The notes under the pieces are model-generated. The model was not told the origin of the DNA, did no database searches, and saw only the letters and a program-made list of their open reading frames with translations. Positions 13,098 to 30,608 of a stretch of 64,000 bases of DNA are shown piece after piece. The stretch covers positions 7,501-71,500 of the forward strand of contig NZ_JAEKEZ010000005.1 in NCBI RefSeq assembly GCF_016650815.1. Direction: 5' to 3'. Position 1 is the first letter of the stretch. Every line of letters starts with the position of its first letter. Origin of the DNA: Pseudomonas sp. TH31. GTDB lineage: Bacteria > Pseudomonadota > Gammaproteobacteria > Pseudomonadales > Pseudomonadaceae. A program made the translations under genes and the position numbers.

Positions 13098-13865
13098 TCA
13101 GAGGCCAAGCAGCGACAACATGATGAATGTTGCAAACAATACAAAGTGCGTCATGCCTTCAATGGCATTGGTTTCGCCATCGTTGAGGTTGATCGCACTG
13201 ACGAGCAACGTCAGGAAGACCATCACCGTCTGCACCGGGGTCATCGCCATATGAAATGGCTGGCCGGTGTAGAGCGCCATCGCTTCCATCACCGGCACCG
13301 TCAGGATCACCGTCGACAGCGAAGCGCCCATGGCGATGTTGACCACTGACTGCATGCGGTTGGCCAGTGCCGCGCGCAATGCGGTCAAAATCTCCGGCGC
13401 GGCGGAAATCGCCGCCACCAGAATCGCCGTGATCACCGGCGGTGCGCCCGTGCCTTCCAGCCCCAGGTCGAGGGTCTTGGACATCACTTCGGCCAAGGCA
13501 CCAATCACCACCACGCCAAACACCAGCATACCGACGCTTAGCGCCACGTTGACCGGCTCAGGCTCGTCTTCCGGGACTTTCTTGCGGCGTTTTTCCGGGT
13601 AGCTGTAGCTGAAGAAATAACTGTGCGGCCCGACCTGCATGCGCAAGAACAAGGTGTAGAGCACGATCATCGCGCCGATGGTGAACGCCGAATACACCTT
13701 CCAGTTGGCCTCGGGGATGAACTCCGGCACCACCATGGAGACGCCCATCGCAGTGAGGATCATCACGCTGTAGCTGCGCGCCGAGTCGTCGTTGTAGGAC
13801 TGTTCGCCATGCTTGATCCCGCCCATCAGCGCGGCGAGGCCGAGGATGCCGTTGATGTCGAGCAT
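13098..13865 (-). pseudogene. chaA: Ca2+/H+ (cation/proton) antiporter, 5'-truncated
   Basis: C-terminal 255 residues of a ChaA-type cation/proton exchanger, an inner-membrane protein of ~360 aa. Visible parts are MLDINGILGLAALMGGIKHG, VPEFIPEANWKVYSAF, a long charged loop, and the second exchanger repeat with AAISAAPEILTALRAALANR and ASLSTVILTVPVMEAMAL. In the family an internal Met stands where this frame now begins, after ~105 residues that include the first exchanger motif (with VEVVILAIM-type sequence, from memory). Immediately upstream on the minus strand there is an in-frame TAG and AT-rich foreign DNA. The gene is therefore cut by the mobile element to its right, and the 5' part is not in this window. 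A functional product is unlikely. Confidence 0.8.
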
Positions 13866-13882
13866 AAGTGTTTTCTAGACAC

Positions 13883-13915
13883 ATTAATGGGTATACCAAA
13901 TCTATACTCATTAAT
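13883..13915. repeat. Inverted repeat at element boundary, candidate attachment site
   Basis: ATTAATGGGTATA (13883-13895) and TATACTCATTAAT (13903-13915) are 13-bp inverted arms with one mismatch and a 7-bp spacer. They start 17 bp from the point where chaA is broken. Two inverted 13-mers around a 7-bp spacer is the architecture of a tyrosine-recombinase core site. The three recombinase genes begin about 100 bp to the right. No second copy was found in the window. Confidence 0.55.
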
Positions 13916-14010
13916 ATCAATGGGTTACGAGCCTTTTTTGACACTGAAAATTTGACACCGTCAAACGAGCGGCTAGATTTTAAGGAGACCTTCGCCAATG
14001 GCCAAATCCC

Positions 14011-16107
14011 ATGCTCAGTTACGAAATCACCGATGACACCCTGTATTTCAGTTGGTCAGACGACGAGACGATCCACGGGTTTCGCTGTTCTACCTTGGCT
14101 GTTCCCTCTTGTTTTGACAGAGCCGCGCTCATTCAAATGGCTGAGGGAATCAAAAGCTTGTGCCTGAGTAATGCTAAGACCAGCTATAGAGGCCACTTTA
14201 GGTCTGCAAGAAACATTTTCAGCCAGGTTAAAAGGGATTCCCAACCGTTTCCGCCAGAACCGGAAAACTGGGACAACTTTGTCTTATCGCATTACGGTAA
14301 TTTCCTTACAGATTCCCGGCGGAAATACAAAACGAGAATTGACCATTGGTCAGGGATTGCTTTTCTCTACAAGAAGCTGCAATGCAGCGGATTTATTCCG
14401 TCAGATGTATATATCCCTAATGAAAAGCTTTCCTCTAATGCGACATCAGATAGTAACAATGGCAACCCCCTTGGCCATCAACGTGAAAAGCCCTCCATAC
14501 CAAAGGACATCAAATGTTTGCTACCAAAAAAATATCTAATCGAAGATGGCTTAAGCCTAAATGATGACGCGTATCTTCTGAATCTCAAAAAGACCCTAGA
14601 CCTTCGAGCAGGCACAGTTATTGATTGCTGCGTCGACTACTGGGAAAAAATGCTTCGGTGCCATGAGAAAGGTAGAGTTATTATTGAGAGCATTTCAATT
14701 GAAGAAATTGAAGATGTGTTGTCGTCAGGCTGCTTCCGCAAAAATGGCAAACATATTGCAGATCCTTCTACGGAAGACGGAATGCGCTGGTTTCTCGCTG
14801 CAGCACACTATTACTTAAATTTTACCGACGAGCTTCCAACCTTAACCTACAAAGAGCTTGAAAAAATACCATTTTTTTACGGCGTTATACAAAACTCACA
14901 CACCAGACCGAAAATAACTTCTGGTATATGGAGGGTCGCCCAAGATGATGGAATTGAAAACAACCAGGTAAATGAAACATTTAATCGCCTACTGGGAAAC
15001 CTCTCACCTAGAGATTGCGCGGTTGCTTGCGCAATCATCATCACTGAAAACCCAACGTTCAATCCAACTGCTCTGGGCAATGTCAAGCTTTACACACAAA
15101 ATGGAAAGTTTTATCTCCGAGGAAATTCTGATACAAAACGCATTACACTAAGCGTGAGCAAGCCGCGCGGTAGAGAGCGTAAAGTTTCGGTTCTTCCATC
15201 CCTCAGTAAACGAATTGTCCAAGATGTGATTCGGTGTACAAGAAATGTCAGGAAGCGACTTCTTGATAAAAAGAAAAGCGGCTGCCGGAAACTCTTCCTA
15301 ATTTCAACTCGCAACCAAGTAGGGTCTAACCCCGACTTTACTAAATCGCTCTCTACCAATCCAGGACTTTCTCTGTACGACATTTACACATCGCAGCTAA
15401 AAAATGTCGGCATAACTCCACCCATGGTTAACCTGTATCGACTTAGATGCACCCAAGGAATACTAGAATTTTTGCGAACAGGAAGTCTTCAGGCAGTAGC
15501 AGATCTACTAGGAAATTCCGTTCAAGTTGTTGAGGCCAAATACATTCCTAAATGGATGGTTCACCGCTGGAATACTAGACTGTTAAGAGTCCTACATCAA
15601 AAATTAATTCTAGTTTCCACAGAGGGCAGCCCATGGCAACAGGACGCTTCTGATTTTGAAACAAGAGAAGATCTCGAGAACTTTATTCGAAAAGTACTCC
15701 AGGGCCTAAACAGGGGTGACGCTTTGAGCGAGGCCATCCGCTCTCGACTGGGGCATTACGCTGCTGATCCAAGCTCGCTTATTCAGATGTTCGTAGAAAG
15801 TGAAATATTGTTTCAGTTATGTCCAAAAAGCCTCGCAGCGATTTATGCGTATGCAGACGTGATTGAAAAAATGCCACGCGAGGAAACAATGAAAATTGAT
15901 CCCGGAACAGATCTCCCGCTCTGGGTCTATGTAATCCTAAAAAAACTTTTTACCCAAACCGCTAATCTGGACTTCAATACCGCCTCGAACGCAGAAATCG
16001 CAATCGCGGACAGGATTGGAGGCGATTCATTGAGTTTATTAAAGAAAGCACACGCTGAAGCACAAAACCTAGCCAAGAAATTCCAGCCATTAATTGAGGC
16101 TTTATAA
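14011..16107 (+). CDS. Tyrosine-recombinase-like protein, first of operon
   Basis: 698-aa protein with a C-terminal integrase-like fold at about residues 330-520. The segment LYRLRCTQGILEFL, then LQAVADLLGNS and EAKYIPKW, follows the HxLRHT..LGHS..Y layout, keeping the second Arg and the Tyr. The HxxR histidine and the LGHS histidine are replaced (Asn in LGNS), and no clear box-I GLR motif is visible near ACAIIITENPT, so catalysis may be lost. An AAGGAG sits ~24 nt before the ATG and better fits a 12-codon frame at 13998, suggesting leader coupling. The gene is AT-rich relative to the flanking core. It is the first gene of a tight recombinase operon next to the broken chaA. Confidence 0.65.
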   Translation: MLSYEITDDTLYFSWSDDETIHGFRCSTLAVPSCFDRAALIQMAEGIKSLCLSNAKTSYRGHFRSARNIFSQVKRDSQPFPPEPENWDNFVLSHYGNFLTDSRRKYKTRIDHWSGIAFLYKKLQCSGFIPSDVYIPNEKLSSNATSDSNNGNPLGHQREKPSIPKDIKCLLPKKYLIEDGLSLNDDAYLLNLKKTLDLRAGTVIDCCVDYWEKMLRCHEKGRVIIESISIEEIEDVLSSGCFRKNGKHIADPSTEDGMRWFLAAAHYYLNFTDELPTLTYKELEKIPFFYGVIQNSHTRPKITSGIWRVAQDDGIENNQVNETFNRLLGNLSPRDCAVACAIIITENPTFNPTALGNVKLYTQNGKFYLRGNSDTKRITLSVSKPRGRERKVSVLPSLSKRIVQDVIRCTRNVRKRLLDKKKSGCRKLFLISTRNQVGSNPDFTKSLSTNPGLSLYDIYTSQLKNVGITPPMVNLYRLRCTQGILEFLRTGSLQAVADLLGNSVQVVEAKYIPKWMVHRWNTRLLRVLHQKLILVSTEGSPWQQDASDFETREDLENFIRKVLQGLNRGDALSEAIRSRLGHYAADPSSLIQMFVESEILFQLCPKSLAAIYAYADVIEKMPREETMKIDPGTDLPLWVYVILKKLFTQTANLDFNTASNAEIAIADRIGGDSLSLLKKAHAEAQNLAKKFQPLIEAL

Positions 16108-16132
16108 TGAACCCACTGATGGTAACTTCTGC

Positions 16133-18313
16133 ATGAATGATCTCCAAGCAGATTTAAACGAAGCACGCATCCGAGCCATGATCAATCAGGCCGAATCAAA
16201 AAGTAGATTGAACAAACGTGATTTTACGTATAAGGCTGACTGGTTGGTGTCGGGTGAAATAGGCAGTGATAAATGGGCAGTCCGCTTTCCAAATATTAAT
16301 GAACCTACCTTTATTGACTTTAATCGTCTAATGCCGGACGGGAGCAACTTAACCGACGAAAGTAATCAGCGGCTTTTGACGACACTACAAAAGTGGCTCT
16401 ACCACTGTCGAATGGGTACTCTGACCGGCAAACTCATCACTCCAGGTCGCTGGATGAATTACCTCCAATTCTCGTTCAACCTGGCATCTTGGATAAAGCT
16501 ACACCGATTCATTTATAAGCCTGAAGCAAATGGATTTATGCTGCTTGATACTGATGCTTGTGAAGCGATAGCTGATGAGCTGAGTACAGGTGGCTGGAAT
16601 TCGGCACTGCTACTCAAAGAAAGATTCATTACACATCTTTTTCAAGTGATTGAGACGCAGTATACCCTTGAAGCAATCCTAGACAATTTAGACGAACTTG
16701 ATGAGCAATTCAAGTCATCAGCTATTCGCTACTTTCAGGATAATAATTTGTACGTAGGTATCGCACAAGACAGTAATTACACGAAAGGAATGCTTTCTCG
16801 AGAATATATTGCAGAAGTCTTGGGAAAAGCACCTACAGCACTTCACGCGCCGAGCTTCAGATTATTTATTAGGCAGTTCGAGCCAAAACTCACAAACGCA
16901 GATGTTTTGCAGGTCGGCACGCGCAAAAACCTTCATTACACCCAAAATACCAAATCGATAGAGGAAGCAGCCGATACCAGCTTGAGCGTTAAACACTTCA
17001 AAGATCAGCTTTACTTTATGAAGTTGTTTTTTAACGGGCATAGCAAATTGCCTGATCACATCCCAAAAATAGATATCGATATTGAATCTTTGGTCAAAGA
17101 ATATGCGACCAACCTCAAAAGTCCGGGACACACTAATTTAATCCCGCTCACCATTGGACTGGACACGCTAAATGAAGCAGCGAAGTGGGTAACGGTATAC
17201 GGCGAGGCAGTTGTAAACTCCTTGATTTTTTACATCGAGAAATTCAGAGAAATCGACGAAAACTATTCACTTTCCAAACAATCCGTGAAGAAGCAAGAGC
17301 TTTTTGAAGAAACTAAACATCTATGGATGACTAAAGATATAGAGGGATTGCCGGCCAAGCGCTTAGATGAAGCGTTAAACATTACCAAACTGCAAACCAA
17401 AAAGAAAAAAAATTTCCCAACTGGCGAAACGCACTATAAAGTTGTTATGGAAAGTTTTTTTGGCGCCTGCGCACTAGTCATCGGTATGCTTAAGCCAATT
17501 CGCAACAAGGAAATAAGCCATCTCGATCGGGCGTGCCTATGGCTTGATAATCCTGGCGGCGGAGCATTCTTGGAACATGAGGTCGGGAAAGCGGGCCAGA
17601 TAGGAATTAACCCAGATATCATACGCCCGATACCATCACTGACTGCCCGAGCCATTCAACTCCTTCAAGTTCTTGGTGTTGGACTCTCTAAAATTTACAA
17701 TGATGAACGGCCTCACGCCGAGAAATTGTTTTATATACCCGGCCGGGGTTTCAAGCTCCCGCCACCGAAATGCAATATGTGGAAAGTAAACTTATGCTTG
17801 AATAGCTTTTGCGAGATTATTAACACGCCAATAGACAAAAAAGGTCGCCGTTGGTATATCCGCGTGCACGAAATGCGAAAGTTCTTTCTCCTGATAACTC
17901 ACCGCCACTACGGGGACGGGTCTAAAGAGTTGCTTAGATATTTAGCAGGGCACGCTGACCGGAGGAACATTGATGACTATACTGCTTATGACATATCCGA
18001 TGCCGAAGCGATACGGTACGAATCCGAGTGTATCGACGACAAGCTTATTGCTTTAGAACTGGGAATATTAGCAAAAGAAGATAATGATGGGCTAGTCGCT
18101 CTCCACGCCGAGGCACTTAAGCACTTCGATGCAACGAGCATATCAACCATAAGCAAAAGCGAATTCATGAAATATCTAGACAAAGTGGGATATCGCTCCG
18201 ACTTTGATATGAAAACTTATTCAATCAGGCTGGAAAATTACGACGCTGATGTCTATGCCATCGATTTTGCTATTAAACTAGGCGAAAGAAAAGATGAGAA
18301 ATACGACAAATGA
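16133..18313 (+). CDS. Tyrosine recombinase, second of operon
   Basis: 726-aa site-specific recombinase. The catalytic set appears complete: box-I Arg in PIRNKEISHLDRA (~455), HEMRKFF giving His-x-x-Arg (~579), LAGHADRRN His (~606) and Tyr in DDYTAYD (~617). A large N-terminal region (1-430) probably binds DNA. I take ATG 16133; the open frame reaches back to a TTG at 16094, overlapping the upstream gene. It is AT-rich and begins 25 nt after the first recombinase. It is likely the main strand-cleaving enzyme, or acts in a complex with the other two, as in Tn554-like and recombinase-in-trio elements. Confidence 0.75.
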   Translation: MNDLQADLNEARIRAMINQAESKSRLNKRDFTYKADWLVSGEIGSDKWAVRFPNINEPTFIDFNRLMPDGSNLTDESNQRLLTTLQKWLYHCRMGTLTGKLITPGRWMNYLQFSFNLASWIKLHRFIYKPEANGFMLLDTDACEAIADELSTGGWNSALLLKERFITHLFQVIETQYTLEAILDNLDELDEQFKSSAIRYFQDNNLYVGIAQDSNYTKGMLSREYIAEVLGKAPTALHAPSFRLFIRQFEPKLTNADVLQVGTRKNLHYTQNTKSIEEAADTSLSVKHFKDQLYFMKLFFNGHSKLPDHIPKIDIDIESLVKEYATNLKSPGHTNLIPLTIGLDTLNEAAKWVTVYGEAVVNSLIFYIEKFREIDENYSLSKQSVKKQELFEETKHLWMTKDIEGLPAKRLDEALNITKLQTKKKKNFPTGETHYKVVMESFFGACALVIGMLKPIRNKEISHLDRACLWLDNPGGGAFLEHEVGKAGQIGINPDIIRPIPSLTARAIQLLQVLGVGLSKIYNDERPHAEKLFYIPGRGFKLPPPKCNMWKVNLCLNSFCEIINTPIDKKGRRWYIRVHEMRKFFLLITHRHYGDGSKELLRYLAGHADRRNIDDYTAYDISDAEAIRYESECIDDKLIALELGILAKEDNDGLVALHAEALKHFDATSISTISKSEFMKYLDKVGYRSDFDMKTYSIRLENYDADVYAIDFAIKLGERKDEKYDK

Positions 18314-18842
18314 TAATTTTAGACTTCGTCTAAAGTGGTTAGCAGAGATCACCGAGAGAAAAATTAATCCATCTAAACTGGAAATAAATGCGCTAAGTAC
18401 AATGCGTCTTTTTTGTGGCCTGAGGGTATCAAAATGGTTCGATAAAATTTCGTTAAACTCATTAAAGAGCGCTGCTTTAGAACTTAGCGAGCAGCAACGT
18501 GGACTGGATCTCTGGATTGATCTCAAGTCCATGAGGGCAGCAGCTTTCGCTTTGCATGTTCCCAACGCCGCTACACCGCCAACCGCCCCTATGCCTTCCG
18601 CTGAAGACCAGGCAAAAAGCGCCTTACTAGATGCGCACATAAGCTCTATGGCTTATTTTGAACTTTACAAATTTATGTCGCTTCTCGTCCAGCAAAACTC
18701 AAATAATGCAAGCGAAATATTGGCAAGTATTGATATAAAAATTCAGACCTCAAAGGCAAAACATTATTCTTTTCTAATACACCACAACAACTTTACCGCA
18801 TCCAGCCTTACTGTGATCAAAGGAGGAAAAGACGGTGGGTAA
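18294..18842 (+). CDS. Unknown protein within recombinase operon
   Basis: 182-aa protein with no recognisable domain. It has a basic N-terminus (NFRLRLKWLAEITERKINPS), a Pro/Ala-rich middle (AATPPTAPMPSAEDQ) and a mostly helical remainder. Its start overlaps the second recombinase by 20 nt and its end overlaps the third by 8 nt, so it is translated as part of the set. In position it recalls small accessory proteins of multi-recombinase elements (TnpC of Tn554, GmtX of gamma-mobile-trio islands), but no sequence similarity can be claimed. Confidence 0.65.
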   Translation: MRNTTNDNFRLRLKWLAEITERKINPSKLEINALSTMRLFCGLRVSKWFDKISLNSLKSAALELSEQQRGLDLWIDLKSMRAAAFALHVPNAATPPTAPMPSAEDQAKSALLDAHISSMAYFELYKFMSLLVQQNSNNASEILASIDIKIQTSKAKHYSFLIHHNNFTASSLTVIKGGKDGG

Positions 18843-20298
18843 GCAATTATATACCATTTATGAGAAAGCTAGGCTGCCCGGAAAGGCAATACCAATATAC
18901 AAAAAAAACAAAGATAATTTCATAGGAAAAACCAGAGTAATTAATAACTTGGTGCTAGTTCAATGGCCTAATGGACGCCCGTGTCATTTAATAAACATGT
19001 GGCTTACTCATATATGCTCTACTACCAATGCAACAGAAACCGCCAAAACATATGCTGCTCAAATTTCATCATTCGTTCGATACTGCTACAGGAACCAAGT
19101 TTCAATAACAGAGTTCACCGAACACAATTTCGTAGCCATGAAGGAATTTTTAGTTCAAGAAACGATTGTGACGCGAACCGGTGTACGGCTGGCTCGTAAC
19201 AATAACCAAACAATACAGATTCAAAAACGCACATTAGAATTCCTGCACTGGATAACTGATAATTACCCGGAAGCATCAATATTTAAACTCGTCGGAGTCA
19301 AGGATACTGGAGCGAACATCACAGTAGAGGTAAAATTTAGCAAGTGGAATGGAAGAAGCTATCTATATCACCCAGAAATAGTTTCGCCAGTCCCTTACAA
19401 CGATGACAAAGTTCCAATCGACGAAGAAACCATCCAAAAACTCCAAAGTGAAATCATCCGAAAACACGACGTGGAGCATTTGCCAGCTCGCTCAAAACTC
19501 AAAGCGATAAAAGATATCGACCTATTTACAGCTACCAACATATATTTATACGAGAGGCGAATGTGTCTTATTAGGACGATGAAACTTATGGGGCTTCGCC
19601 CAGAAGAGCTGCATGAACTCCCTTTGGAGCTAAATTACAACATCACGAAGACAAAGCAAATTACAGCACCAACAAGGAAACGAGGCGACCCAAACCTTGT
19701 TCGCAGATTTAAAATCGACTTACCGTCCGCCCGACGTTTCAATCAATATCTAGAGGCTCGTCAAGACTACATAGATTTTTTACAATCAAAAGGCATTTAT
19801 TGCTTACAACCAAATAATTTTTTTATAGGTGAAAACGGCAAAGCGCTAAAGAAATCGTCAATTACCAAGGAGTTTGATCGATTGTGCGAAGGTGCAGGCC
19901 TCACGAGTTCACGCGTATGCCTCTCAATGTTTAGGCATCGCTTTGTTACTCGCGAAATCAACATTAGGCTTGAAGCACGGTTCGCTAAAAATCCGCACAT
20001 AAAAAATGGATGGACGCCTGAACTTAGGGATAGCGTATGCCTGGAGGTGGCTGAACTTACAGGCCACGCGGATCCCGAGTCACTGTATAATTATTTTTAC
20101 GCAGAATATAAGGCCATCACTTCGACCTCTAGCTATAGTGAAAAGCTGCGGATTCGTGATGAACTTGAATCGGCTAAAGAAGAATTAGTCGATCTAGAGC
20201 ATCAATCGCGGCTACGGAGAATCGATTTGACGTCAGAACTCCAGTTGATAAGAACTCGCATAAACGAAATGCATTCAAAGCTGTTCGGATTTGAGTGA
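18835..20298 (+). CDS. Tyrosine recombinase, third of operon
   Basis: 487-aa phage-integrase-type recombinase. It has box-I Arg in MKLMGLRPEELHELP (~253), the box-II segment LSMFRHRFVTRE (~365; the usual first His is Ser) and AELTGHADPESLYNYF with His ~408 and Tyr ~418. A C-terminal coiled coil (RIRDELESAKEELVDLEHQS) follows. The GTG start at 18835 has a strong AGGAGG 9 nt upstream inside the preceding gene. It ends the operon; the following 150 bp shows no further gene. Confidence 0.8.
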   Translation: MGKQLYTIYEKARLPGKAIPIYKKNKDNFIGKTRVINNLVLVQWPNGRPCHLINMWLTHICSTTNATETAKTYAAQISSFVRYCYRNQVSITEFTEHNFVAMKEFLVQETIVTRTGVRLARNNNQTIQIQKRTLEFLHWITDNYPEASIFKLVGVKDTGANITVEVKFSKWNGRSYLYHPEIVSPVPYNDDKVPIDEETIQKLQSEIIRKHDVEHLPARSKLKAIKDIDLFTATNIYLYERRMCLIRTMKLMGLRPEELHELPLELNYNITKTKQITAPTRKRGDPNLVRRFKIDLPSARRFNQYLEARQDYIDFLQSKGIYCLQPNNFFIGENGKALKKSSITKEFDRLCEGAGLTSSRVCLSMFRHRFVTREINIRLEARFAKNPHIKNGWTPELRDSVCLEVAELTGHADPESLYNYFYAEYKAITSTSSYSEKLRIRDELESAKEELVDLEHQSRLRRIDLTSELQLIRTRINEMHSKLFGFE

Positions 20299-20453
20299 GC
20301 TTTTCATGTTGATCCGGAAGGCGGGAATTCGGATTAAATAATCACGGGGTGTGTGCTGGTGGGATAAAAAGCTAACAATCCAAGTGATGTTCATCAGCCC
20401 TCCTTACACGCTACGTGTCAAAATCGTCTTCCCACATGCCTCTTGAGAGCACC

Positions 20454-20741
20454 ATGGCCCGCACACAACAGAATCTAGATTGCCTACGTGCTCGGTTAAG
20501 CGTCGTCATGGGCGATCAGAAGCAGTGGTTGACTGGTATCACTCTTTCTCAAATGCTTGAAGATATTGGGTTAGAGGACTGTCCAACGGCCACGAGCAAG
20601 GGAGATCGTCTTCGGGGCGCAGTTGAAGCTTCCAGCGACGAGCAGATCGTAGAGGCTTCTCAAAAAGTCCTGAATGCTTTGCAACTGACCTACTGTGAGC
20701 GTCACAACCAGAGAAACTGCGCCACCGTCCGTGGTTCGTGA
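20454..20741 (+). CDS. Small hypothetical protein, possibly truncated
   Basis: 95 aa from ATG 20454 (an upstream ATG at 20415 is in frame). The N-terminal part (LDCLRARLSVVMGDQKQWLT, LEDIGLEDCPTATSKGDRLR, VEASSDEQIVEASQKVL) reads like a genuine folded domain. The tail after ALQL is basic and unlike it, and the 3' end overlaps the next gene by 47 nt. It may be the 5' remnant of a longer gene. Function unknown. Confidence 0.45.
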   Translation: MARTQQNLDCLRARLSVVMGDQKQWLTGITLSQMLEDIGLEDCPTATSKGDRLRGAVEASSDEQIVEASQKVLNALQLTYCERHNQRNCATVRGS

Positions 20742-21060
20742 CGTCGACGCAAACACCCCGCTCTCAGCGAGAGAGGTATGCCAAATATTGCGAGAGGTCA
20801 CCTTCGAGCGACGGACGATGACCAAGGTGAGCCTGGCGTCTTGGGATGAGATTTATGCGGGCCATTTCGTGGTAAGCGTCGAGGGTTGGCATATATCGAT
20901 CTACAACGACTCTGACACGCTCGACTACTGCGAAGAATGCGTGAGTCCGGAGGGGCGGCGATGGTCGTTTGACGGAGGGGATCGATTTGGAACGGATCCC
21001 ATTGCGTTGCTCAGCACATGGGAACATCAGACGCTTGAGCGTCTCCTGAAAGCGCTCTAG
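20695..21060 (+). CDS. Small Pseudomonas-type protein, DUF7693-like
   Basis: 121 aa from GTG 20695. It contains LSAREVCQILREVTFERRTM, a Trp-rich middle (WDEIYAGHFVVSVEGWHISI), DTLDYCEECVSPEGR and a C-terminal DPIALLSTWEHQTLERLL. This pattern resembles a family of short Pseudomonas proteins that I recall as DUF7693; its function is not known. Internal starts (ATG 20818) would remove the first third. Confidence 0.55.
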   Translation: MSVTTRETAPPSVVRDVDANTPLSAREVCQILREVTFERRTMTKVSLASWDEIYAGHFVVSVEGWHISIYNDSDTLDYCEECVSPEGRRWSFDGGDRFGTDPIALLSTWEHQTLERLLKAL

Positions 21061-21249
21061 GGAGCCAAGGTCGAGTGGGCCTCTAAGAGGACGGCTGTCA
21101 TGAACCAAGCCTCGCCGTTGCCGAGTCTTGGCCCTGTGGGCTTCCATCCTCCCGCCTGCGCGCTCCGCTTGCTTTGATCATCCCCGAGTGGATAACACCT
21201 CGCTTTTTGCCCCTGCTGCTCTGTAGTTATCTAACATGTAGAAAATGAA

Positions 21250-21459
21250 ATGAAGGGTGAGTATTCGCTATCAGACGTTCTGGAAAGGATGTTCGAGAAC
21301 CAACTCGCCCTCGAGGCTGCCCTGATGGAATTTACCCTTCATGTGGAAGCCCACGGACATGCGGATGTGGGGGACAACGTTCGAGGAGCTCAAGCGACAA
21401 TCGGCGAGAACGCTGGACACATCAAGCAAGGGCTAGCACGGCTCAACCATCGCCCATGA
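21250..21459 (+). CDS. Small hypothetical protein (69 aa)
   Basis: Acidic, mostly helical protein with YSLSDVLERMFENQLALEAA, HGHADVGDNVRGAQATIGEN and a C-terminal GHIKQGLARL. Short proteins with this layout recur in Pseudomonas accessory regions, but no function is known to me. The start is ATG 21250; a second ATG 5 nt upstream is out of frame. Confidence 0.55.
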   Translation: MKGEYSLSDVLERMFENQLALEAALMEFTLHVEAHGHADVGDNVRGAQATIGENAGHIKQGLARLNHRP

Positions 21460-21728
21460 TCCAGCCGCTGTTCGACTTTGATCTCAAACGCGCGTCGTGC
21501 GAGCACTACATCACAGGGAAAGCCACCATCAACTTTCCGCATCAGGGAAGCACCACAGGTGGATGGCATTTCCTGTCTCACTTCGCCTGAGAATCCGGCG
21601 TGGCCAAGGTGTATCTCGTGGGTATTCACTATCCTGTCATGCGTGCATAACCATCAGCAGCGTGGCGCGTATTCACTAGAATACACATGTTTTCTGTCCG
21701 AACTGAAAACACTCTGAGTTCGCTACAC

Positions 21729-22765
21729 CTAGTGTGGCAATTGCTGCAGCACTTCATTAGTAAAGAACGGTTCGTCCTCTACCCAGAATATATAATCCAG
21801 TCCGAGGTGGCTGCGTGAAAATTCTATAATATCGGCAACCGTGTTTTTCTTTCCTGTCTTGGGGTTGATTTGGCGCAGGTTTCCATCCTGGACAGCCATT
21901 CCTTTCACTAAATCATCTGGGTACATTTTGAAGAAACCGTAGGTTTGTGCCATATGACTTTTACGATAGGGCATCAAATCAGGGCCCCCTACTGCCATTT
22001 TAAGTTTCTTCGCTTCGGCAAATAAGCTACGCATATAGCCCTTGTCCTGCAGTGGTAGCCACTCGTCCGGTAGAAAATTCAGGTAAACCATTGGGGTCGA
22101 CTTCCTGAACGCGCCACTCAGTGCTTGCATATTTGAGTTGATCGCATCCACATATAACCTTGGATCAAAATCTTTTGGAAAGATGGTCGTACCGTCTGGC
22201 TGTTCAACGCCTATTTCTATAGAGCTCTCGCTAAAATTTATCCCTTCGACTTGTCCATCCAGCTCCTTCCCCAATGCAGCAATCAGCTTTTGGAAGCGAT
22301 CACGCACCGGTTTGTCCCACATCTTTGCTGACCACCCGTACTCATCATCAGCCTCTGGTTTGTTAGGATCGCGCTCCGGAGCCGAGAGCATGCTCTGCTT
22401 CAATACTCCCCCCTTGTAGATGGGATCGAGCAGCAGATAGTCCGGTACGTTTTTTTATTGGGCTGGAAGGATTTTTCCTGTAGTTGTATCCAAAGTTTCT
22501 TATCGATAGACCTCAAATAGGCAATGTCCTGCTTGATCGCGGAAAAATCGTACTGGTCTTTGACCGGCTCTAGGCTGCGCCAGGTGTAGACAATTTGCGC
22601 CCCGCTAAAGCGAGGGTCGGACAACGCCTTGTCCTTCCTGATATTTGATCCGCCTGCTTCGCGGTTAGGGAAGTAAATGTAGTTCTTGGCGGGCTGGCCT
22701 GCTGCAACAGCCGTGCTGGTTATGAGTATAGTCAGCGTAAAAATGAATATTTTTATTTGGTTCAT
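21729..22765 (-). pseudogene. Secreted glycoside-hydrolase-like protein, frameshifted
   Basis: Predicted exported protein of about 345 aa. The signal peptide is IKIFIFTLTILITSTAVAAG. The remainder looks like a TIM-barrel glycoside hydrolase: RFSGAQIVYTWRSLEPVKDQ, YLRSIDKKLWIQLQ, VEGINFSESSIEIG and a late acidic motif YIFWVEDEPFF. The N-terminal frame (22765 down) breaks at a T7 run (22450-22456). One more base gives PNKKNVPDYLLLDPIYKGG and joins the frames. Substrate unknown. It stands alone, with no neighbour suggesting a pathway. Confidence 0.65.
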
Positions 22766-22889
22766 CTGGTGACTTCCAGTTTGGATATATCTCGATTGGG
22801 CGTCAGACGACTCACTCGCGCAAAGTCGCAGCAGGGCTACTTCCTGTATTTCTTCGCCTGGCGGGCATCAACTTTTGTGTAGATAAAAC

Positions 22890-22910
22890 ACCCGATGCAC
22901 TGCATCGGGT
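22890..22910 (-). terminator. Hairpin downstream of HTH gene
   Basis: ACCCGATGCA / TGCATCGGGT form a near-perfect stem, followed on the minus strand by GTTTTATC. The likely terminator of the DUF2975-HTH operon, 49 bp after its last gene. Confidence 0.65.
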
Positions 22911-22958
22911 ATCGGGATTAAACAACTTAAAACTCCCTTATGAACCAACCATTACGAG

Positions 22959-23186
22959 CTAGTCTTCAATGCTTGTCTCCGGTGTTGCGACATGCAACAT
23001 AAGATCGCCTGGCTGACAATTCAAATAGCGGCAAATCGCATCCAACGTCGCTAGCCGAACCCCCTTCACTTTACCTTGCTTAAGCAATGATAAATTTTGC
23101 TCTGTAATTCCAATGGCAGCGGCCAAGTCTTTAGATTTGACTTTGCGTTGAGCCAACACCACATCGAGCTTTATTTCAATCGTCAT
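22959..23186 (-). CDS. XRE/Cro-type HTH regulator paired with DUF2975 protein
   Basis: 75-aa regulator consisting almost entirely of one HTH domain (VVLAQRKVKSKDLAAAIGI, TEQNLSLLKQGKVKGVRLAT, DAICRYLNCQPGDLM). Such mini-HTH proteins (YozG-like) are habitually encoded beside DUF2975 membrane proteins, as here with a 9-bp gap. It probably autoregulates the pair; the signal is unknown. Confidence 0.85.
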   Translation of the reverse strand: MTIEIKLDVVLAQRKVKSKDLAAAIGITEQNLSLLKQGKVKGVRLATLDAICRYLNCQPGDLMLHVATPETSIED

Positions 23187-23195
23187 GATATGGCC

Positions 23196-23753
23196 TTAGA
23201 TAAATTGCTGATTTTCTCTAGCCAATACACTTCCTTTTTGATGAATGCGGGCAACAACCATTACCGAAGCAGCAAGGAAGAGACTGACCAAGTCCGATGA
23301 GTCAAACGCTATCGTCAGCAGGCCCTGACCCGGAGGCTGAAGCATGGTGACCCAGACGCTGATTGCCGGCGTCAGCACGAAGCTCAAAAGCACCCACATG
23401 ATCACACCGAAACCTACCTTACCGAGCAGGACTGATGATTTCTCCGAGAAGTAGTGCCCCTCACTGTACAACTGAAACAAGCGGCGTAAGGCAATTAAGC
23501 CGTTAGCCAAAATCAGTAAAGGAATACTGGAAAGGATCACGCCACCAGCAACTTGCCACCAGGGCATAGTACCGACATCAACATTCAGATTCCCTGTCAC
23601 TCCTATAGCTGTCAGATTAAAACCCAAGCCGTACTGTCTCGCGGCATCGGGTAAAAACCAGCAAGCAGCGTTCAATACAAGCATACCGATTATCAGGGCT
23701 TGAGTGAGAGTCGCCATTAAACGGCTGTGGCGGGCCAAATGATCAGTTGTCAT
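23196..23753 (-). CDS. DUF2975 membrane protein
   Basis: 185-aa inner-membrane protein with four hydrophobic segments (LTQALIIGMLVLNAACWFL, GGVILSSIPLLILANGL, VGFGVIMWVLLSFVLTPAI, LVSLFLAASVMVVARI) and LRRLFQLYSEGHYFSEKS between helices 2 and 3, typical of DUF2975. AAGGACG precedes the ATG. Forms an operon with the following HTH gene. Function of the family is unknown. Confidence 0.8.
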   Translation of the reverse strand: MTTDHLARHSRLMATLTQALIIGMLVLNAACWFLPDAARQYGLGFNLTAIGVTGNLNVDVGTMPWWQVAGGVILSSIPLLILANGLIALRRLFQLYSEGHYFSEKSSVLLGKVGFGVIMWVLLSFVLTPAISVWVTMLQPPGQGLLTIAFDSSDLVSLFLAASVMVVARIHQKGSVLARENQQFI

Positions 23754-24517
23754 CAGAAACGTCCTTTACGGTTCAGTTTTCCCCTTGATCCATCTTGTGC
23801 CCACCGTATAGATGAAGCACAACACCTCAAGAGATTTAATAGCTGTAAAACAGCTATAAATTAATGTATTACGATAATTTAACCGTGTCAAAATTTTTTA
23901 CTTTACGCCTGAAAGCCCCTTCGTAAGCCGCCTGAACTCGCGGTGCATAGCGGTTCAACGCCCCTCCTGACGCCGCCACATTCTTTCCGGCATCCCGAGC
24001 GAGGTGGATGTTTTCCCGAAACGTTGGTGCCGATCCTCGAGACTCTGCGCAAAGACCAGACTTCAAGCAGTAGGCGAGGAGCACCTACCAGGCATAGGCG
24101 AAAGTACCTAACGAGAAGCTCGGCGCAGCCAAAAAAACGGTTGACTATTATTTATTATCGCTGCACAGTAATTTATGCATGATCTACAGACATTCCAAGC
24201 TTGAAAAATCTGATCAGTTGCTGGGCGCACGCAGATGGTAGGGCTAGATCGGCGTTCTCTTCGAAACAGCTAGCCTGCACTAGGATTCCTGAGTGTACTT
24301 ACCGTGAAACCCATGACAGGAAGCATGGCTTGGAAACCAATAATTCATTAAAAATAGTCAGAAGCCGCTTATCTACCTAGCTTGGCCCTATTTGTTTATT
24401 CCTATCTAAGGAAAAGACTTTTAATCGAATTGACACATAAATTTTAGAATTTGGTATTTTGAGTTAAAAAATAGTGTGTGAAAGCTCTGTAGGCACGTAA
24501 CTCCAATTAGCAAAATT
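23754..24517. other. Gene-poor stretch
   Basis: A 764-bp region without a convincing gene. A 71-codon minus-strand frame (23869-24084; ends AYEGAFRRKVKNFDTVKLS) has protein-like sequence in its last half and may be the remnant of a gene. The region is AT-rich from 24100 onward. Confidence 0.4.
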
Positions 24518-24531
24518 TGAGACAGATCTTA
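24518..24531 (+). promoter_or_regulatory. Palindrome site 1 (TGAGACAGATCTTA)
   Basis: One of seven copies of TGAGA-N4-TCTYA. It starts 76 nt before the ATG of the pseudo-receiver gene, the same distance as site 5 to its gene. Confidence 0.6.
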
Positions 24532-24593
24532 GATCGCCCTCACAACAGTCAGTGTATTTTTGTAGGCACTACAAATTATTGAGCACCGCCATC

Positions 24594-25112
24594 ATGACGC
24601 ACTCAAATTTCACTACTAGCCCAATGAGATTATTAATCGCCGACCAGGATTCTAGACGACGTGTCTCTGTCGAAAAAACACTAGCCATATTAGGCTACTT
24701 CAGGGTTTGTCCTACAAAATCCTTCGATGAGCTAACCGCCCTCACACATTTCAGCCCAGGCTTATATGATCGCTTCGACCTATTAATTATTAACGCTGAC
24801 TTAATTTCAGCGGCAGGGCTAGACACTTTGGACTTTTGTGTCAATAACTCGCGTCTACGGCACGTACTCATCTATGACTCGACAGCGGCGCCTGATACTC
24901 CTAAAACTTTATCTAAACGCCCTAACCATCAGGTGCGACTGATTGAGACCATTAGCTACGACGCATTGGTGGACTTTCTAAAATTAATAGATAAAAACCA
25001 CAAACTTGAAAAACCAAATGTAACTCCCATCGCATTACTTAAAGCAAATACTAGCTTAAGGCCCGCACGCGAGAAAACTGCAACACCACTTATCCACTCA
25101 AATAACATTTGA
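24594..25112 (+). CDS. Receiver-like protein with degenerate phosphoacceptor
   Basis: 172-aa protein. Residues ~10-125 follow a CheY-like fold (MRLLIADQDSRRRVSVEKTL, then FDLLIINADLISAAG). At the phosphoacceptor position the usual Asp appears to be Asn (LIINADL). No output domain follows; the tail (KANTSLRPAREKTATPL) is disordered. It starts the roc-like cluster directly after palindrome site 1 and precedes a BvgA/RocA-type regulator by 23 nt. It may act as a phosphorylation-independent adaptor or be the remnant of a RocR-like protein without its EAL domain. Confidence 0.6.
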   Translation: MTHSNFTTSPMRLLIADQDSRRRVSVEKTLAILGYFRVCPTKSFDELTALTHFSPGLYDRFDLLIINADLISAAGLDTLDFCVNNSRLRHVLIYDSTAAPDTPKTLSKRPNHQVRLIETISYDALVDFLKLIDKNHKLEKPNVTPIALLKANTSLRPAREKTATPLIHSNNI

Positions 25113-25135
25113 CGACGCCGAATGGAATACAAAAA

Positions 25136-25762
25136 ATGAACAATCGGATTCTTATTGTGGACGACCATCCCGTCATTCGCATGGCCATTCAATTAACTCT
25201 GGCCAGCGAGGGGTATGACGTAATAGGGGAAGCGGACAATGGAGCTGACGCGCTTGAATTGATTGAGAAGTTTTGCCCTTCAACACTGATTCTAGATATT
25301 GGGATTCCCGTCATCGACGGACTAACGGTTATCAGAACAATCGCGCAGAAAAAACTACCCGTAAAAGTTGTCGTATTAACCGGTATGCCATCAAGGCATT
25401 TAGCATGGCGGTGCCGAAAAATGGGGGCTCATGCTTTCCTCAGCAAACAAACTCAGCACTCTGAATTGGCTGACGCTGTCCGAACTGTCCAGAACAACAA
25501 AAAATATTACCCTGACATCCCTTGCCCTGAGGAACGTCTAGATTGCGCCACGCATGAGCATGAACAACTACAGCGCTTATCAGCCTGCGAATTTCGAGTC
25601 ATGCAGCAACTACTGCAAGGCATGAAAAACAAGGATATTGCGAGCGCAATGCTATTGAGCCCTAAGACCACCAGCACTTACAAAACTAGAATATATCAAA
25701 AGCTTCAAATCAATAACTTAATAGACTTGCACTCAATAGCGAAACGAAACGATTTAATCTGA
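25136..25762 (+). CDS. BvgA/RocA-type response regulator (REC + LuxR HTH)
   Basis: 208-aa response regulator. The receiver domain has acidic pocket VDDHP (~7-10), phosphoacceptor Asp in LILDIGIPVIDG (~54), Thr in VVLTGMPS and Lys in AFLSKQ. The C-terminal LuxR-type HTH (RLSACEFRVMQQLLQGMKN, SPKTTSTYKTRIYQKL) binds DNA. It resembles RocA/BvgA/EvgA, the partners of VFT-type hybrid sensors. Start ATG 25136 is preferred to the overlapping TTG at 25109. Probable regulator of the fimbrial operon further on. Confidence 0.85.
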   Translation: MNNRILIVDDHPVIRMAIQLTLASEGYDVIGEADNGADALELIEKFCPSTLILDIGIPVIDGLTVIRTIAQKKLPVKVVVLTGMPSRHLAWRCRKMGAHAFLSKQTQHSELADAVRTVQNNKKYYPDIPCPEERLDCATHEHEQLQRLSACEFRVMQQLLQGMKNKDIASAMLLSPKTTSTYKTRIYQKLQINNLIDLHSIAKRNDLI

Positions 25763-25775
25763 CTCACCCCAAAAG

Positions 25776-26459
25776 CTACAAACCTTTCAAATGAGACTGC
25801 ATCTTAAAAAGCTCCGTATCACTACGAATTCCTAACTTTCTGAACGCCGCTTGCTTTTGCCCACTGATCGTTTTGTTGCTACGTGAAAATTTTATAGCTA
25901 CCTGGGAAACCGACAAACCGTCCAGGCAGCAACGCAACACCTCGCGCTCCCTGGGAGACAGCTCGGAACATCGCGCCAGGGCCTCATCCCCGTTAAAGAT
26001 GGTGTCTTCCTCCGCCAATTGCGGCGGCCTATGCAGCGCCTCAACCATTGCCGGCGCCAAGTACATTCGGTCAGAAGCGACCACACGAATGGCCTTCAAG
26101 AGCTCTTCGGTTTCTTGTGATTTGCCCACAAAGCCATTTGCCCCCGCTCGAATGCAGATGTTGACCGTGGCAGCCCTTTCCGTCGACGAGAAAATTACAA
26201 TTCGCAAATCGGGATGCTGGGTACGGAGCGTTTGTATCAAACGAAGGCCATCGATCTCCCCGTCACTCAATTGATAATCGAGTACCAGCAAATCTGCCGA
26301 TTGGGCGCGCAAACCTTCAAATAAATCCCGGCTGGTGGTGTAAACGCCAGCTACCTTAAAGTCTGCCTCCAGCGACAAGCGAACCTTCAGCGCCTCACGA
26401 ATCAGTGCATGATCATCTAGGAGGGCGACTCGCAACGGTGACATTACAGACCACTTCAT
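25776..26459 (-). CDS. Second response regulator (REC + LuxR HTH)
   Basis: 227-aa regulator convergent with the first (14-bp gap). Receiver: LLDDHALIREALK, Asp in LLVLDYQLSDGEIDG, VIFSSTERA and FVGKSQE. LuxR-type HTH: ELSPREREVLRCCLDGLSV, RSNKTISGQKQAAFRKLG. ATG 26459 has GGAG 8 nt upstream. Its transcript starts in the same intergenic region as the sensor kinase gene, divergently. Two response regulators around one sensor suggest a branched phosphorelay, as described for Roc systems. Confidence 0.85.
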   Translation of the reverse strand: MKWSVMSPLRVALLDDHALIREALKVRLSLEADFKVAGVYTTSRDLFEGLRAQSADLLVLDYQLSDGEIDGLRLIQTLRTQHPDLRIVIFSSTERAATVNICIRAGANGFVGKSQETEELLKAIRVVASDRMYLAPAMVEALHRPPQLAEEDTIFNGDEALARCSELSPREREVLRCCLDGLSVSQVAIKFSRSNKTISGQKQAAFRKLGIRSDTELFKMQSHLKGL

Positions 26460-26627
26460 GATCGAACTCCTATTTGCAGCAGGGTGGGAAATATCCCGCA
26501 TCACAAAAAAACAGCTCCACGTTACCCGAACTCTTTCCCCAAGGAAATCCCCGATTCATGGCCTTCTGCTGACTATAATCCGCCTCGCCCTACCAATGCT
26601 TGCGCATCAAGTAAGCGATCCGTTTTT

Positions 26628-26641
26628 TGAGACATATCTCA
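26628..26641. promoter_or_regulatory. Palindrome site 2 (TGAGACATATCTCA)
   Basis: Perfect TGAGA-N4-TCTCA palindrome between the divergent response regulator (start 26459) and sensor kinase (start 26964). Confidence 0.6.
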
Positions 26642-26767
26642 TTGTCATGCGCTGGCGTTGGTCATAATTGCCATATAGCCTTCGGACTCATGCATCGATC
26701 AAAAGAACGACTGGATTTCTTAACAATCTCCAGAACGGATCACTCTTTGTCATTGACGGCGCCTGAC

Positions 26768-26826
26768 ATCGGCTAAGCCGATAGAATTAGTGCTACGACC
26801 GCTGCGTCCGGGCAGCGCGCTGCCCG
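26768..26826. promoter_or_regulatory. Two further dyads upstream of the sensor kinase
   Basis: ATCGGCT-A-AGCCGAT (26768-26782) and CGGGCAGCG/CGCTGCCCG (26809-26826) are perfect inverted repeats 26 bp apart, 138-196 bp before the kinase ATG. Either may be an operator; the second could also be a hairpin attenuator. Confidence 0.4.
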
Positions 26827-26963
26827 CACTCTATTTTCGGTGACTACGGCTTAGAACTCATTCTCCCGTCAGCGCTTACCCGATATAAACTGATCGGTGA
26901 TGCTTGCCCCCGTGCGGATTGCTCAGGGCTACACCTCCAGCGCTCTCAAAGAACTAGAAGATC

Positions 26964-30230: not shown

Positions 30231-30293
30231 AGCACCAAGCGGCGCGCGCAGGCCGCGACCAAAAGCGGGAGCGAGCTTGATAAAATCCGGCTT

Positions 30294-30608
30294 TTGAGCC
30301 CTGAGTCGTACGGCCCGCTGGTTAATGAGTTGGTGCGCACTCATCGCCAAGAGGGGCAAGAGCTGGAGCGTTTAGCTAGCCTCGACGATAGAGTTGGATT
30401 GGTCAGAGTCGCTCATAAAATTCGTGGCGGAGCACAATTAGCAGGCGATGATGCGTTAGCGGAGGCGTGTCGTGTTATTGAGCAGATTGCCTGTGAGGTA
30501 GATTCATCGGAGTACGGCTGCCACGTCGAACAGGTATTGGTTTGCCTTCAGGCTCTTGAAGCGCGATTGCTTCAAGATCTTGGCAGCAACGAACTGTTGG
30601 CGCGTTGA
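30294..30608 (+). CDS. Hpt phosphotransfer domain, severed from the sensor
   Basis: 104-codon frame from a TTG at 30294 with the Hpt signature VAHKIRGGAQLAGDDAL (phospho-His in HKIRGG) and helical flanks. It is in the same frame as the upstream sensor kinase, and the 63 nt between TAA 30230 and 30294 have no stop, so one codon separates them. In RocS/BvgS proteins this domain is the covalent C-terminus. No ATG or good Shine-Dalgarno precedes it, so independent translation is doubtful unless re-initiation or readthrough occurs. Confidence 0.7.
   Translation: MSPESYGPLVNELVRTHRQEGQELERLASLDDRVGLVRVAHKIRGGAQLAGDDALAEACRVIEQIACEVDSSEYGCHVEQVLVCLQALEARLLQDLGSNELLAR

What the first reader, a model, noticed from the sequence alone, without database searches (positions are those of the whole stretch)
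13860..20298. Three-recombinase element inserted in chaA with an inverted-repeat core site at the break
chaA stops abruptly at 13865/13866. Seventeen bp further lie 13-bp inverted arms around a 7-bp spacer, and then four overlapping or tightly spaced genes: recombinases of 698, 726 and 487 aa plus a 182-aa unknown. The arrangement resembles Tn554 (tnpABC), recombinase-in-trio and gamma-mobile-trio islands but the sizes and gene order do not clearly match any I know. Everything to the right could be its cargo (fimbriae, autotransporter, Hachiman-like genes).
Basis: partly seen in the sequence, partly recalled or inferred. Interest (0 to 1): 0.65.

Follow-up and report, generated by a model that had tools for sequence, protein, structure and literature searches.

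The report
Four-gene recombinase defence island in chaA
A 51-kb mobile DNA island in a Pseudomonas-type genome sits at an exact spot inside the chaA gene and carries its own four-gene set of recombinases; comparison with relatives shows the joining site and a one-sided rule in how it joins, with a gene order that differs from the published relatives it was compared with.

Summary
The missing 5' part of chaA begins just under 1 kb past the window edge, so chaA carries a 51,098-bp island (window-equivalent 13871-64968). The 13-bp inverted repeat is not the core site: only the nearest relative keeps it. The site is the 11-bp end TTTTCTAGACA (13871-13881), mirrored at the far end, with a 6-bp spacer. 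The operon is A (698 aa, recombinase fold, first catalytic Arg missing), B (726 aa, RHRHY), C (182 aa, helical), D (487 aa recombinase); the order was complete in 22 of 25 family loci and never contradicted. By profile D matches IntA and B matches IntB of strand-biased elements (SEs), whose order is intA-tfp-intB-srap. At 13 insertions in three target genes, the 6 bp at the far end reads as the native gene; at 12 of them the 6 bp at the operon end does not (one is ambiguous). This is the reverse of the published SE rule and implies strand-biased integration. Cargo includes anti-phage systems (Hachiman here; Gabija and Avs2 in a relative). Verdict: a new variant of the GInt/SE/Tn554 kind. A named relative, Tn6571, could not be compared.

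The parts
13098..13865 (-). 3' part of chaA (cation/proton antiporter), cut off by the island; last native base before the spacer is 13864
13865..13870 (.). attL spacer TAAGTG, foreign by comparison (the usual chaA hexamer TCACCG sits at the other end)
13871..13881 (.). left end / core arm, TTTTCTAGACA; mirrored as TGTCTAGAAAA at window-equivalent 64958-64968 (C5:72458-72468, outside the window)
   Evidence: exact in 13 of the 16 left ends aligned
13883..13915 (.).
13938..13957 (+). two direct TTGACA copies 14 bp apart; 11 of 16 left ends have two and 5 have one, 65-92 bp from the end; one copy lies 19 bp from the right end in 9 of 9 chaA islands; accessory site and/or -35 of the operon promoter
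   Evidence: site; function inferred
14011..16107 (+). gene A, 698 aa, degenerate tyrosine recombinase (no Arg at the first catalytic position, assigned by eye; Arg479, Asn502, Tyr511); recombinase fold by model
16133..18313 (+). gene B, 726 aa, large tyrosine recombinase with R457, H579, R582, H607, Y616; profile match to SE IntB
18294..18842 (+). gene C, 182 aa, all-helical small protein; likeness to Srap/GinD/TnpC is only in size and helical make-up
   Evidence: no sequence match
18835..20298 (+). gene D, 487 aa, ordinary-size tyrosine recombinase (R255, K282, S364 in place of His, R367, H411, Y420); profile match to SE IntA
20299..64000 (.). variable cargo (continues to window-equivalent 64957): hybrid sensor kinase, chaperone-usher pair, autotransporter, three transposase genes (IS66 by model; IS5- and IS630-like by my reading of the domains), lytic transglycosylase and others; blastn identity to the G128 island stops at 20300
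59742..60830 (-). DUF808 gene, recurrent passenger near the right end (7 of 8 chaA islands with 7 kb or more of the right end read)
60990..64000 (-). Hachiman defence genes: HamB 60990-63635; HamA lies mostly beyond the window edge (L004:125-1162, minus)

Best explanation
The region is a site-specific genomic island mobilised by a four-gene tyrosine-recombinase module (A-B-C-D). Shown from sequence: it occupies an exact site in chaA, is bounded by 11-bp mirrored ends beside a 6-bp spacer, the ends and operon are kept while the cargo is replaced, and after insertion the native 6 bp lies at the cargo end and a foreign 6 bp at the operon end. Inferred: the island circularises by joining its two ends around a 6-bp spacer; B and D are the catalytic recombinases; A is a catalytically weakened recombinase that binds or bridges the ends; C is an accessory architectural factor; the product of one strand only is recovered at integration (strand-biased, as published for SEs), so each insertion leaves the incoming 6 bp at one fixed end. 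Transfer between cells is probably by hitch-hiking or uptake (guess): I did not search with models for conjugation genes; Pfam scans of 19 window ORFs, 18 of them inside the island, named none.
For: Both halves of chaA flank the island on one contig. Same site, same 11-bp ends in 9 genomes, among them G146 whose A-D proteins are only 30-40% identical to ours. Empty site in 75 of 149 genus genomes within 3 mismatches, and in none of the four sampled genomes found with chaA insertions (G000, G058, G128, G146). Polarity: with the attR 6 bp put between the host flanks all 13 insertions read as the ordinary gene (chaA S-A-V-M-L 9 of 9; response regulator D-L-[VI]-I-L-D-I 3 of 3; transporter G-L-I-A-F 1 of 1), with the attL 6 bp 12 of 13 do not; G146 reads S-A-V-M-L either way. 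Operon order kept. Pairwise identities of A-D correlate at r 0.96-0.98 over 18 elements (no control for shared descent). Identity between G000 and G128 ends at 20300, two bases past the stop of D, and resumes about 180 bp before the right end. D-IntA 97.9%, B-IntB 95.3% by profile comparison; one SE (L127) is also hit directly, D 2.9e-10 on its first gene, B 5.2e-6 on its third. A aligns with XerH (Z 11.5, 4.2 A, 280 residues) and Tn1549 integrase (Z 11.2, 4.6 A, 285).
Against: No circle, excision or transfer was observed; no reads were available. The 13 insertions are not all independent: G000 and G128 share a spacer, L132/L133 and L129/L130 have near-identical ends, three are in homologous response regulators. 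In 3 of 9 chaA cases the two ends are on different contigs; for L136, L138, L140 and L141 I did not check that both ends are on one contig. Ends and polarity were tested only in the near group; the distant members (L023-L027, L106-L117, L036) were not examined for ends. Near-group members that could not be read at both ends: L135, L137/L021 (no right end by the pattern), L142 (no left motif), L143 (left motif not sought). A and C have no significant profile match to Tfp or Srap. Three other SEs (L078, L126, L128) get no direct HMM hit. D has Ser instead of the usual His in HxxR. For mostly helical models Z values of this size can also arise by common arrangement (note).
Confidence: 0.85

Rival explanations
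1. It is a plain GInt (ginABCD, Tn6571/Tn6488 subfamily) and the different gene order belongs to an already known subfamily or is a matter of annotation.
For: GInts are islands with three integrase-type genes and one small gene at one end, variable cargo, a short AT-rich other end and imperfect direct flanking repeats of 10-17 nt (text of PMC5385486); here TGTCGAGCA / TGTCTAGAA flank as imperfect direct repeats (sequence). Defence cargo in GInts is published for E. coli (passages of PMC10121019). Tn6571 is listed as ginABCD in a Tn554 family (passages of PMC8865565), and elements of the present order occur on large plasmids of P. aeruginosa, P. koreensis (broken) and Pseudomonas sp. FeN3W.
Against: By the papers ginD, the small gene, is last and GinC, the third, lacks the first Arg; here the small gene is third and the protein lacking the first Arg is first, in all complete loci and all 18 rows of A.
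Confidence: 0.3
2. Integration is ordinary two-strand recombination and the fixed polarity comes from mismatch repair or from selection on one junction, not from strand bias.
For: GInt work reports heteroduplex resolution in either direction. Native 6 bp could be favoured where the gene fragment is still used.
Against: Two-strand exchange with random resolution predicts both polarities; 12 of 13 show one and the 13th is compatible with it. Sign test, by the formula: 4.9e-4 for 12 independent events, 0.016 for a cautious 7. The target genes are already broken, so selection on one end only is not obvious.
Confidence: 0.15
3. The island arrived by homologous recombination of flanking chaA sequence from a strain that already had it, and the recombinase operon is a relic.
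For: G000 and G128 share operon and spacer TAAGTG with 92% identity from 11475 to 20300.
Against: The operon genes are open and keep catalytic residues; the same end motif and spacer rule occur in three unrelated target genes.
Confidence: 0.1

Closest known systems
[quoted passage not shown] SE-6945 (PMC10214605, parts 1-5 of 10 read; PMC9345347, two passages)
   Same: Four-gene core with two active tyrosine recombinases, one degenerate and one small protein; inverted terminal motifs; 6-bp spacer carried from site to site; few target sites; D-IntA and B-IntB kinship by profile
   Different: Order A-B-C-D (degenerate, IntB-like, small, IntA-like) instead of intA-tfp-intB-srap; the foreign 6 bp lies at the operon end, not at the far end; A and C have no significant match to Tfp and Srap; islands of 51, 28 and 33 kb in the three measured against an SE median of 15.7 kb and maximum of 58.5 kb
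GInts / ginABCD islands, Tn6571 and Tn6488 (PMC5385486, parts 1-3 of 6 read; PMC8865565, two passages; PMC10121019, five passages)
   Same: Three integrase-type genes and a small gene at one end, variable cargo up to tens of kb, high site specificity, interrupted target genes, defence or resistance cargo
   Different: Small gene is third, not last; degenerate recombinase is first, not third; targets here are chaA, a response-regulator gene and a transporter gene, whereas the parts read name an ABC transporter gene, ssb and a ribonucleotide reductase gene. No certified GInt sequence was available for comparison
Tn554 (tnpABC)
   Different: Four genes here; no direct sequence comparison made
Gamma-mobile-trio (GMT) systems
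   Same: Recombinase trio with defence genes (recalled); a GMT is present elsewhere in this same genome
   Different: No GMT model among NCBIfam hits of A-D at E up to 1 (A only TrkA at 0.23, D generic Xer models, B and C none); A-D find nothing in the GMT locus
RIT (recombinase in trio)
   Same: Three adjacent recombinase genes
   Different: RIT proteins are 315-410 aa, three genes, 34-bp terminal inverted repeats (as told in PMC10214605); here 698/726/487 aa plus a fourth gene and 11-bp ends

Membership tests
SE (strand-biased circularizing integrative element) | Core order intA-tfp-intB-srap | tested here: not met
   Order A-B(IntB-like)-C(small)-D(IntA-like): 22 of 25 family loci complete, 3 of 25 partial but consistent, 0 otherwise; 21 of 21 loci (six shared; three pairs are the same genome). 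SE yardsticks L078, L126, L127, L128 show YR, large, large, small by position
SE (strand-biased circularizing integrative element) | IntA and IntB homologues | tested here: met
   D vs SE IntA 97.9%, 3.9e-13; B vs SE IntB 95.3%, 2.2e-8; the cross pairs D-IntB 1.6%, B-IntA 5%. B and D also match each other (87-91%)
SE (strand-biased circularizing integrative element) | Tfp and Srap homologues | tested here: inconclusive
   A vs Tfp 1.7%, C vs Srap 0.1%; A has a recombinase fold by model, C is helical
SE (strand-biased circularizing integrative element) | Host 6 bp at attL (operon, intA end), donor 6 bp at attR | tested here: not met
   Opposite in 12 of 13 insertions, the 13th ambiguous
SE (strand-biased circularizing integrative element) | attL x attR recombination without an empty site in the donor | not testable with these tools
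   Needs PCR or reads
GInt | Operon of three tyrosine recombinase-type genes followed by a small last gene (ginD) | tested here: not met
   Small gene is third, recombinase D is last
GInt | Third recombinase (GinC) lacks the first Arg | tested here: not met
   First gene A lacks it in 18 of 18 rows; B and D have it in 19 of 19
GInt | Sequence homology to ginABCD | tested here: inconclusive
   No certified GInt sequence held; SE-ordered elements from Paraburkholderia (L125) and Pseudomonas pSTY (L124) match D and B by profile at positions 1 and 3 but could not be named GInt
GInt | Circular intermediate and site-specific reintegration needing all four genes | not testable with these tools
   Bench test
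Tn6571 subfamily (ginABCD) | Homology and gene order of Tn6571 | not testable with these tools
   Two papers found with the name; no sequence available by that name
GMT | GMT recombinase and associated-protein models | tested here: not met
   No GMT model among hits at E up to 1, although NF040693 recomb_GmtY is in the release and finds a GMT in this genome
Tn554 | Three genes tnpABC | tested here: not met
   Four genes; no Tn554 sequence was compared
[quoted passage not shown]
   Sizes 698, 726, 487 aa and 11-bp ends; definition as told in PMC10214605

The most novel reading that the evidence does not exclude
A separate class of multi-recombinase island, frequent in Pseudomonas, whose core is a cyclic permutation of the SE core (tfp-intB-srap-intA instead of intA-tfp-intB-srap) and whose integration has the mirror-image strand polarity, as if the element had once been re-opened from its circular form at a different place. 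In the near group the same conserved ends insert at three unrelated genes and leave the donor's 6 bp at the operon end.
Probability: 0.35. Interest if true: 0.7.

Novelty: new variant of a known kind. Interest (0 to 1): 0.52.

Why it matters
Multi-recombinase islands carry anti-phage defence and resistance genes, but how their three recombinases and small factor share the work is open. Here a set of relatives gives exact ends, spacer and polarity without any experiment: the natural insertions that could be read obey one rule, opposite to that published for SEs, together with a different gene order. That makes it testable whether gene order, the end-proximal recombinase and the strand that is exchanged are linked. 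It also gives a marker (TTTTCTAGACA / TGTCTAGAAAA with TTGACA inside both ends) for finding and delimiting near-group islands, some of which bear defence systems, in Pseudomonas.

Tried and rejected
Core site = 13-bp inverted repeat: rejected, not conserved. GMT membership: rejected. Plain SE: rejected on order and polarity. Origin of the foreign spacer: I supposed that TAAGTG came from another chaA (it would read S-A-L-M-L in frame); a pattern for such a chaA had no exact match in 398 genomes and two one-mismatch hits, one of them with TAAGCG. The other attL spacers read as S-G-I-L-L, S-D-S-M-L, S-V-M-M-L, S-V-I-M-L, S-D-L-M-L, which I have not seen in chaA, so their origin stays open. First scan of genome contigs with protein D alone: 61 stretches matched, none a relative, though relatives exist, so that scan was insensitive. 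Viral contigs with the D alignment: none. Phage records: no match. SE Tfp as query found nothing in 149 genus genomes, which says nothing without a positive control. Fold search with C gave no match at E 0.001, and with A none at E 0.001; the second look with A did. Two hits of the right-end pattern, L159 and L162, are not ends of the islands studied (one search shows their surroundings; L162 was not followed further). Distribution: 22 of 149 genomes of the genus draw (E 0.001) against 1 of 369 of the class draw, that one being this genome itself (E 1e-10); thresholds differ. The family also occurs in Providencia plasmids, a Solemya symbiont and Pseudoalteromonas, so it is centred on, not confined to, Pseudomonas. 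Cyclic permutation as an event is weak: A and C are not shown to be Tfp and Srap, and cargo would have to be absent when it happened. Whether the order is in print: paper searches; no passage that I read describes it, but most listed papers were seen only as titles and abstract starts, and Tn6571 papers outside the library were not seen.
Full report
What was checked. The window is stretch 7501-71500 of contig C5 of a 7.2-Mb genome in 38 contigs. chaA similarity ends at 13865; its missing 5' part is in the same contig (C5:72461-72781; 72467-72790). The only other hit to the exchanger model in this genome is a partial, weak match in a frame of 397 aa on another contig, so no second intact chaA was seen.

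The island. Left end: GATGTCGAGCA[TAAGTG]TTTTCTAGACA at 13854-13881. Right end: TGTCTAGAAAA[TCACCG]CCGAGTAG from window-equivalent 64958. The island runs from 13871 to 64968, 51,098 bp; the G128 and G146 islands at the same site measure 28,212 and 33,017 bp from the positions printed. Reading the 5' fragment of chaA into the island, the sequence gives V-I-F and then TAG, a stop supplied by the end motif itself (read by eye). Between G000 and G128, identity of 92% runs up to 20300, two bases after the stop of gene D, and resumes at 64787, about 180 bp before the right end; between them blastn at E 1e-10 finds only the DUF808 stretch in common. Cargo is thus exchanged while operon and ends stay.

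The site. Seventeen loci were scanned for the left motif with a pattern loosened to fit the variants seen; 16 have it, L142 has none, and L143 was not scanned. Of the 16, 13 have TTTTCTAGACA exactly, one TTTTCCAGACA and two TTTTGTGGACA. The loose pattern occurs once on the + strand of the 64-kb window. All nine right ends of chaA islands have TGTCTAGAAAA and a TTGACA 19 bp inside, within a dyad GTCAAAGCC-GGCTTTGAC, after a tandem hexamer such as GAGCAG. Left ends have two (11 of 16) or one (5 of 16) TTGACA copies 65-92 bp from the end. This may be an accessory binding site or a -35 element; which one is not shown.

Empty sites. Within 3 mismatches the uninterrupted chaA site is in 75 of 149 genus genomes, and in none of the four of the sample found with chaA insertions, G000, G058, G128, G146. 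The other 70 genomes without a match were not examined; the pattern is strict, so absence there means nothing. Among the 75, the central 6 bp is TCACCG in 55 and one of six other forms in 20; this count leans to TCACCG because the pattern held it, and spacers far from it could not appear in the list.

Polarity. Nine genomes with chaA insertions could be read at both ends. attR has TCACCG in 8 and TCACGG in 1; attL has TAAGTG twice and TGACCG, TGGAGT, TCATGA, TTATGA, TTAGGT, AAATAC, AAATTC once each. Put between the host flanks, the attR 6 bp gives S-A-V-M-L in 9 of 9, the attL 6 bp something else in 8 of 9; in G146 both give S-A-V-M-L, and both hexamers occur among the 75 empty sites, so that case is ambiguous. 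One empty site (G036) has the G146 attR hexamer followed by the same ten bases, which favours the same polarity there. Six of nine have both ends on one contig by contig number or length (G000, G128, G146, G398, G401, G402); three are split between contigs. Four further insertions, three in a response regulator and one in an AI-2E-type transporter (names from the translated flanks and my own knowledge), were read at both ends. In each, the attR 6 bp gives the ordinary reading (P-D-L-V-I-L-D-I-S-I-P twice, P-D-L-I-I-L-D-I-S-I-P once, G-G-L-I-A-F-G-F-I) and the attL 6 bp does not. So 12 of 13 are clear and the 13th is compatible. By the sign formula this is 4.9e-4 for 12 independent events and 0.016 for a cautious 7. 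Published SE work says that the host 6 bp goes to attL, the intA side, and the donor 6 bp to attR; here it is the other way round with respect to the operon. Ordinary two-strand exchange with heteroduplex at both ends would give both outcomes, so I infer that one strand's product is recovered, as proposed for SEs. Ends and polarity were not studied in the distant members of the family.

The proteins. B keeps R-H-R-H-Y in 18 of 19 rows (L021 has Gln for the second His); D keeps R255, K282, R367 and Y420 in 19 of 19, has His at 411 in 17 and Gln in 2, and has Ser in place of the first His of HxxR in all six near rows but His in the 13 distant ones; A lacks Arg at the first position (assigned by eye), has Asn (7) or His (11) at 502 and keeps R479 and Y511 in 18 of 18. 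An AlphaFold2 model of A (mean pLDDT 80, pTM 0.61) aligns over residues 36-532 with XerA (Z 11.7, rmsd 15.8, 266 residues), XerH (11.5, 4.2, 280), Tn1549 integrase (11.2, 4.6, 285), lambda integrase (11.1, 4.4, 259) and Cre (10.8, 5.1, 278); the first 43 of 50 rows are tyrosine recombinases, type IB topoisomerases or protelomerases. Foldseek alone had no match at E 0.001. C is modelled as seven helices (mean pLDDT 80, pTM 0.48) and has no PDB match at E 0.001.

Kinship. Profile comparison gives D-IntA 97.9% and B-IntB 95.3%, with cross pairs of 1.6% and 5%; A and C have no significant partner among the SE proteins (A 20% with the second gene of the Paraburkholderia/pSTY pair). Four elements served as SE set: pAQU1 (named in the paper), SE-6945 on pSEA2 (recognised by WP_176703888.1), and two found by similarity to the pAQU1 IntB, their genes assigned by position. 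SE and the Paraburkholderia/pSTY elements match one to one in the same order; the nearly identical Cupriavidus copy was left out of the profiles. Relative to them, the IntA homologue of the present family has gone from first to last, which makes the order a cyclic permutation if A and C are taken as counterparts of Tfp and Srap; that last step is by type only. By plain HMM, A-D find nothing in the GMT locus of this genome or in the SEs L078, L126, L128, and find L127, L124 with D and B and L123, L125 with B only.

Distribution. Protein B finds 12 of 149 genus genomes at E 1e-10, six of them at 1e-80 or better; the profile finds 22 of 149 at E 0.001. In a draw of 369 genomes of the class only this genome itself answered at E 1e-10. 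Plasmids of Providencia, P. aeruginosa, P. koreensis and Pseudomonas sp. FeN3W carry the wider family in the same order, two of them with split genes. Of 27 loci given, two were controls (GMT, SE); of the 25 others, 22 have A, B, C, D in that order, L035 and L116 are broken but in order, L110 shows only B and D. Four of the 25 also show a further weak D-type hit outside the operon (L021, L025, L108, L115), taken as other integrases. In one search, 21 of 21 loci have the order; L139 has B in two pieces.

Cargo. This island has Hachiman (HamB 1070 bits, HamA 444 bits) next to a DUF808 gene at the right end. In G128 the same slot holds Gabija (GajA, GajB), and Avs2 and a PtuA-type ATPase lie nearby (9 proteins of two islands were scanned, L018:16876-18381 and L074:4034-5392 had no hit). 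Two ORFs of the Gabija sizes, 639 and 558 aa, sit in the same slot in L152, L154 and L155 (size only). DUF808 was found in 7 of 8 chaA islands of which at least 7 kb of the right end was read; L153 (7.4 kb) has none, and L157 (0.4 kb) is too short to tell.

Judgement. A mobile, site-specific four-gene recombinase island in chaA: near certain from comparison. Strand-biased integration with the donor 6 bp at the operon end: likely. A class of its own: open, because GInt and Tn6571 sequences could not be compared, and PMC8865565 lists Tn6571 and Tn6488 as ginABCD members of a Tn554 family.

Noticed in passing
G000:C33:582216-590299 (L030): A gamma-mobile-trio recombinase (GmtY over the NCBIfam cut-off) lies elsewhere in the same genome; NF040692 (recomb_assoc; its being the GMT small protein is recalled) matches in two pieces 3.4 kb apart with a 530-aa ORF between them, the length of the IS66 transposase in the window, so it looks interrupted by an insertion sequence.
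   Followed up: partly
G000:C15:163465-165525 (L116): A second, distant member of the same four-gene family is in this genome, with gene A in two ORFs, no C hit and a TGA inside the B match.
   Followed up: no
window 59742-60830 and L073, L074, L152, L154, L155, L156: A DUF808 gene rides near the right end of 7 of 8 chaA islands read; whether it helps the island or replaces something lost with chaA is unknown.
   Followed up: partly
L036 (Providencia plasmid pPROV073-3): A distant family member lies between a class A beta-lactamase gene and umuD; its D gene is identical in seven Providencia plasmid records.
   Followed up: no
L121, L122: Family members on large Pseudomonas plasmids start beside TerB/TerC/TerD-type genes.
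   Followed up: no
right ends, e.g. L077 about 1380-1430: Tandem hexamers GAGCAG/GAGCAA run just inside the right end of the nine chaA islands (G146 has GGGCAA).
   Followed up: no
L140 and L161: If its two ends are on one contig, the response-regulator island of P. putida 700447 would span roughly 155 kb; not verified.
   Followed up: no
L162 (G405:C3:82549-82578): A TTGACA-N13-TGTCTGGAAAA stretch, the form of a right end with the motif variant of L141, in a genome whose studied island ends elsewhere; could be a second element.
   Followed up: no
window 26964-30230 and 32020-35395: Cargo holds a hybrid sensor kinase with solute-binding domains and a chaperone-usher pair.
   Followed up: no
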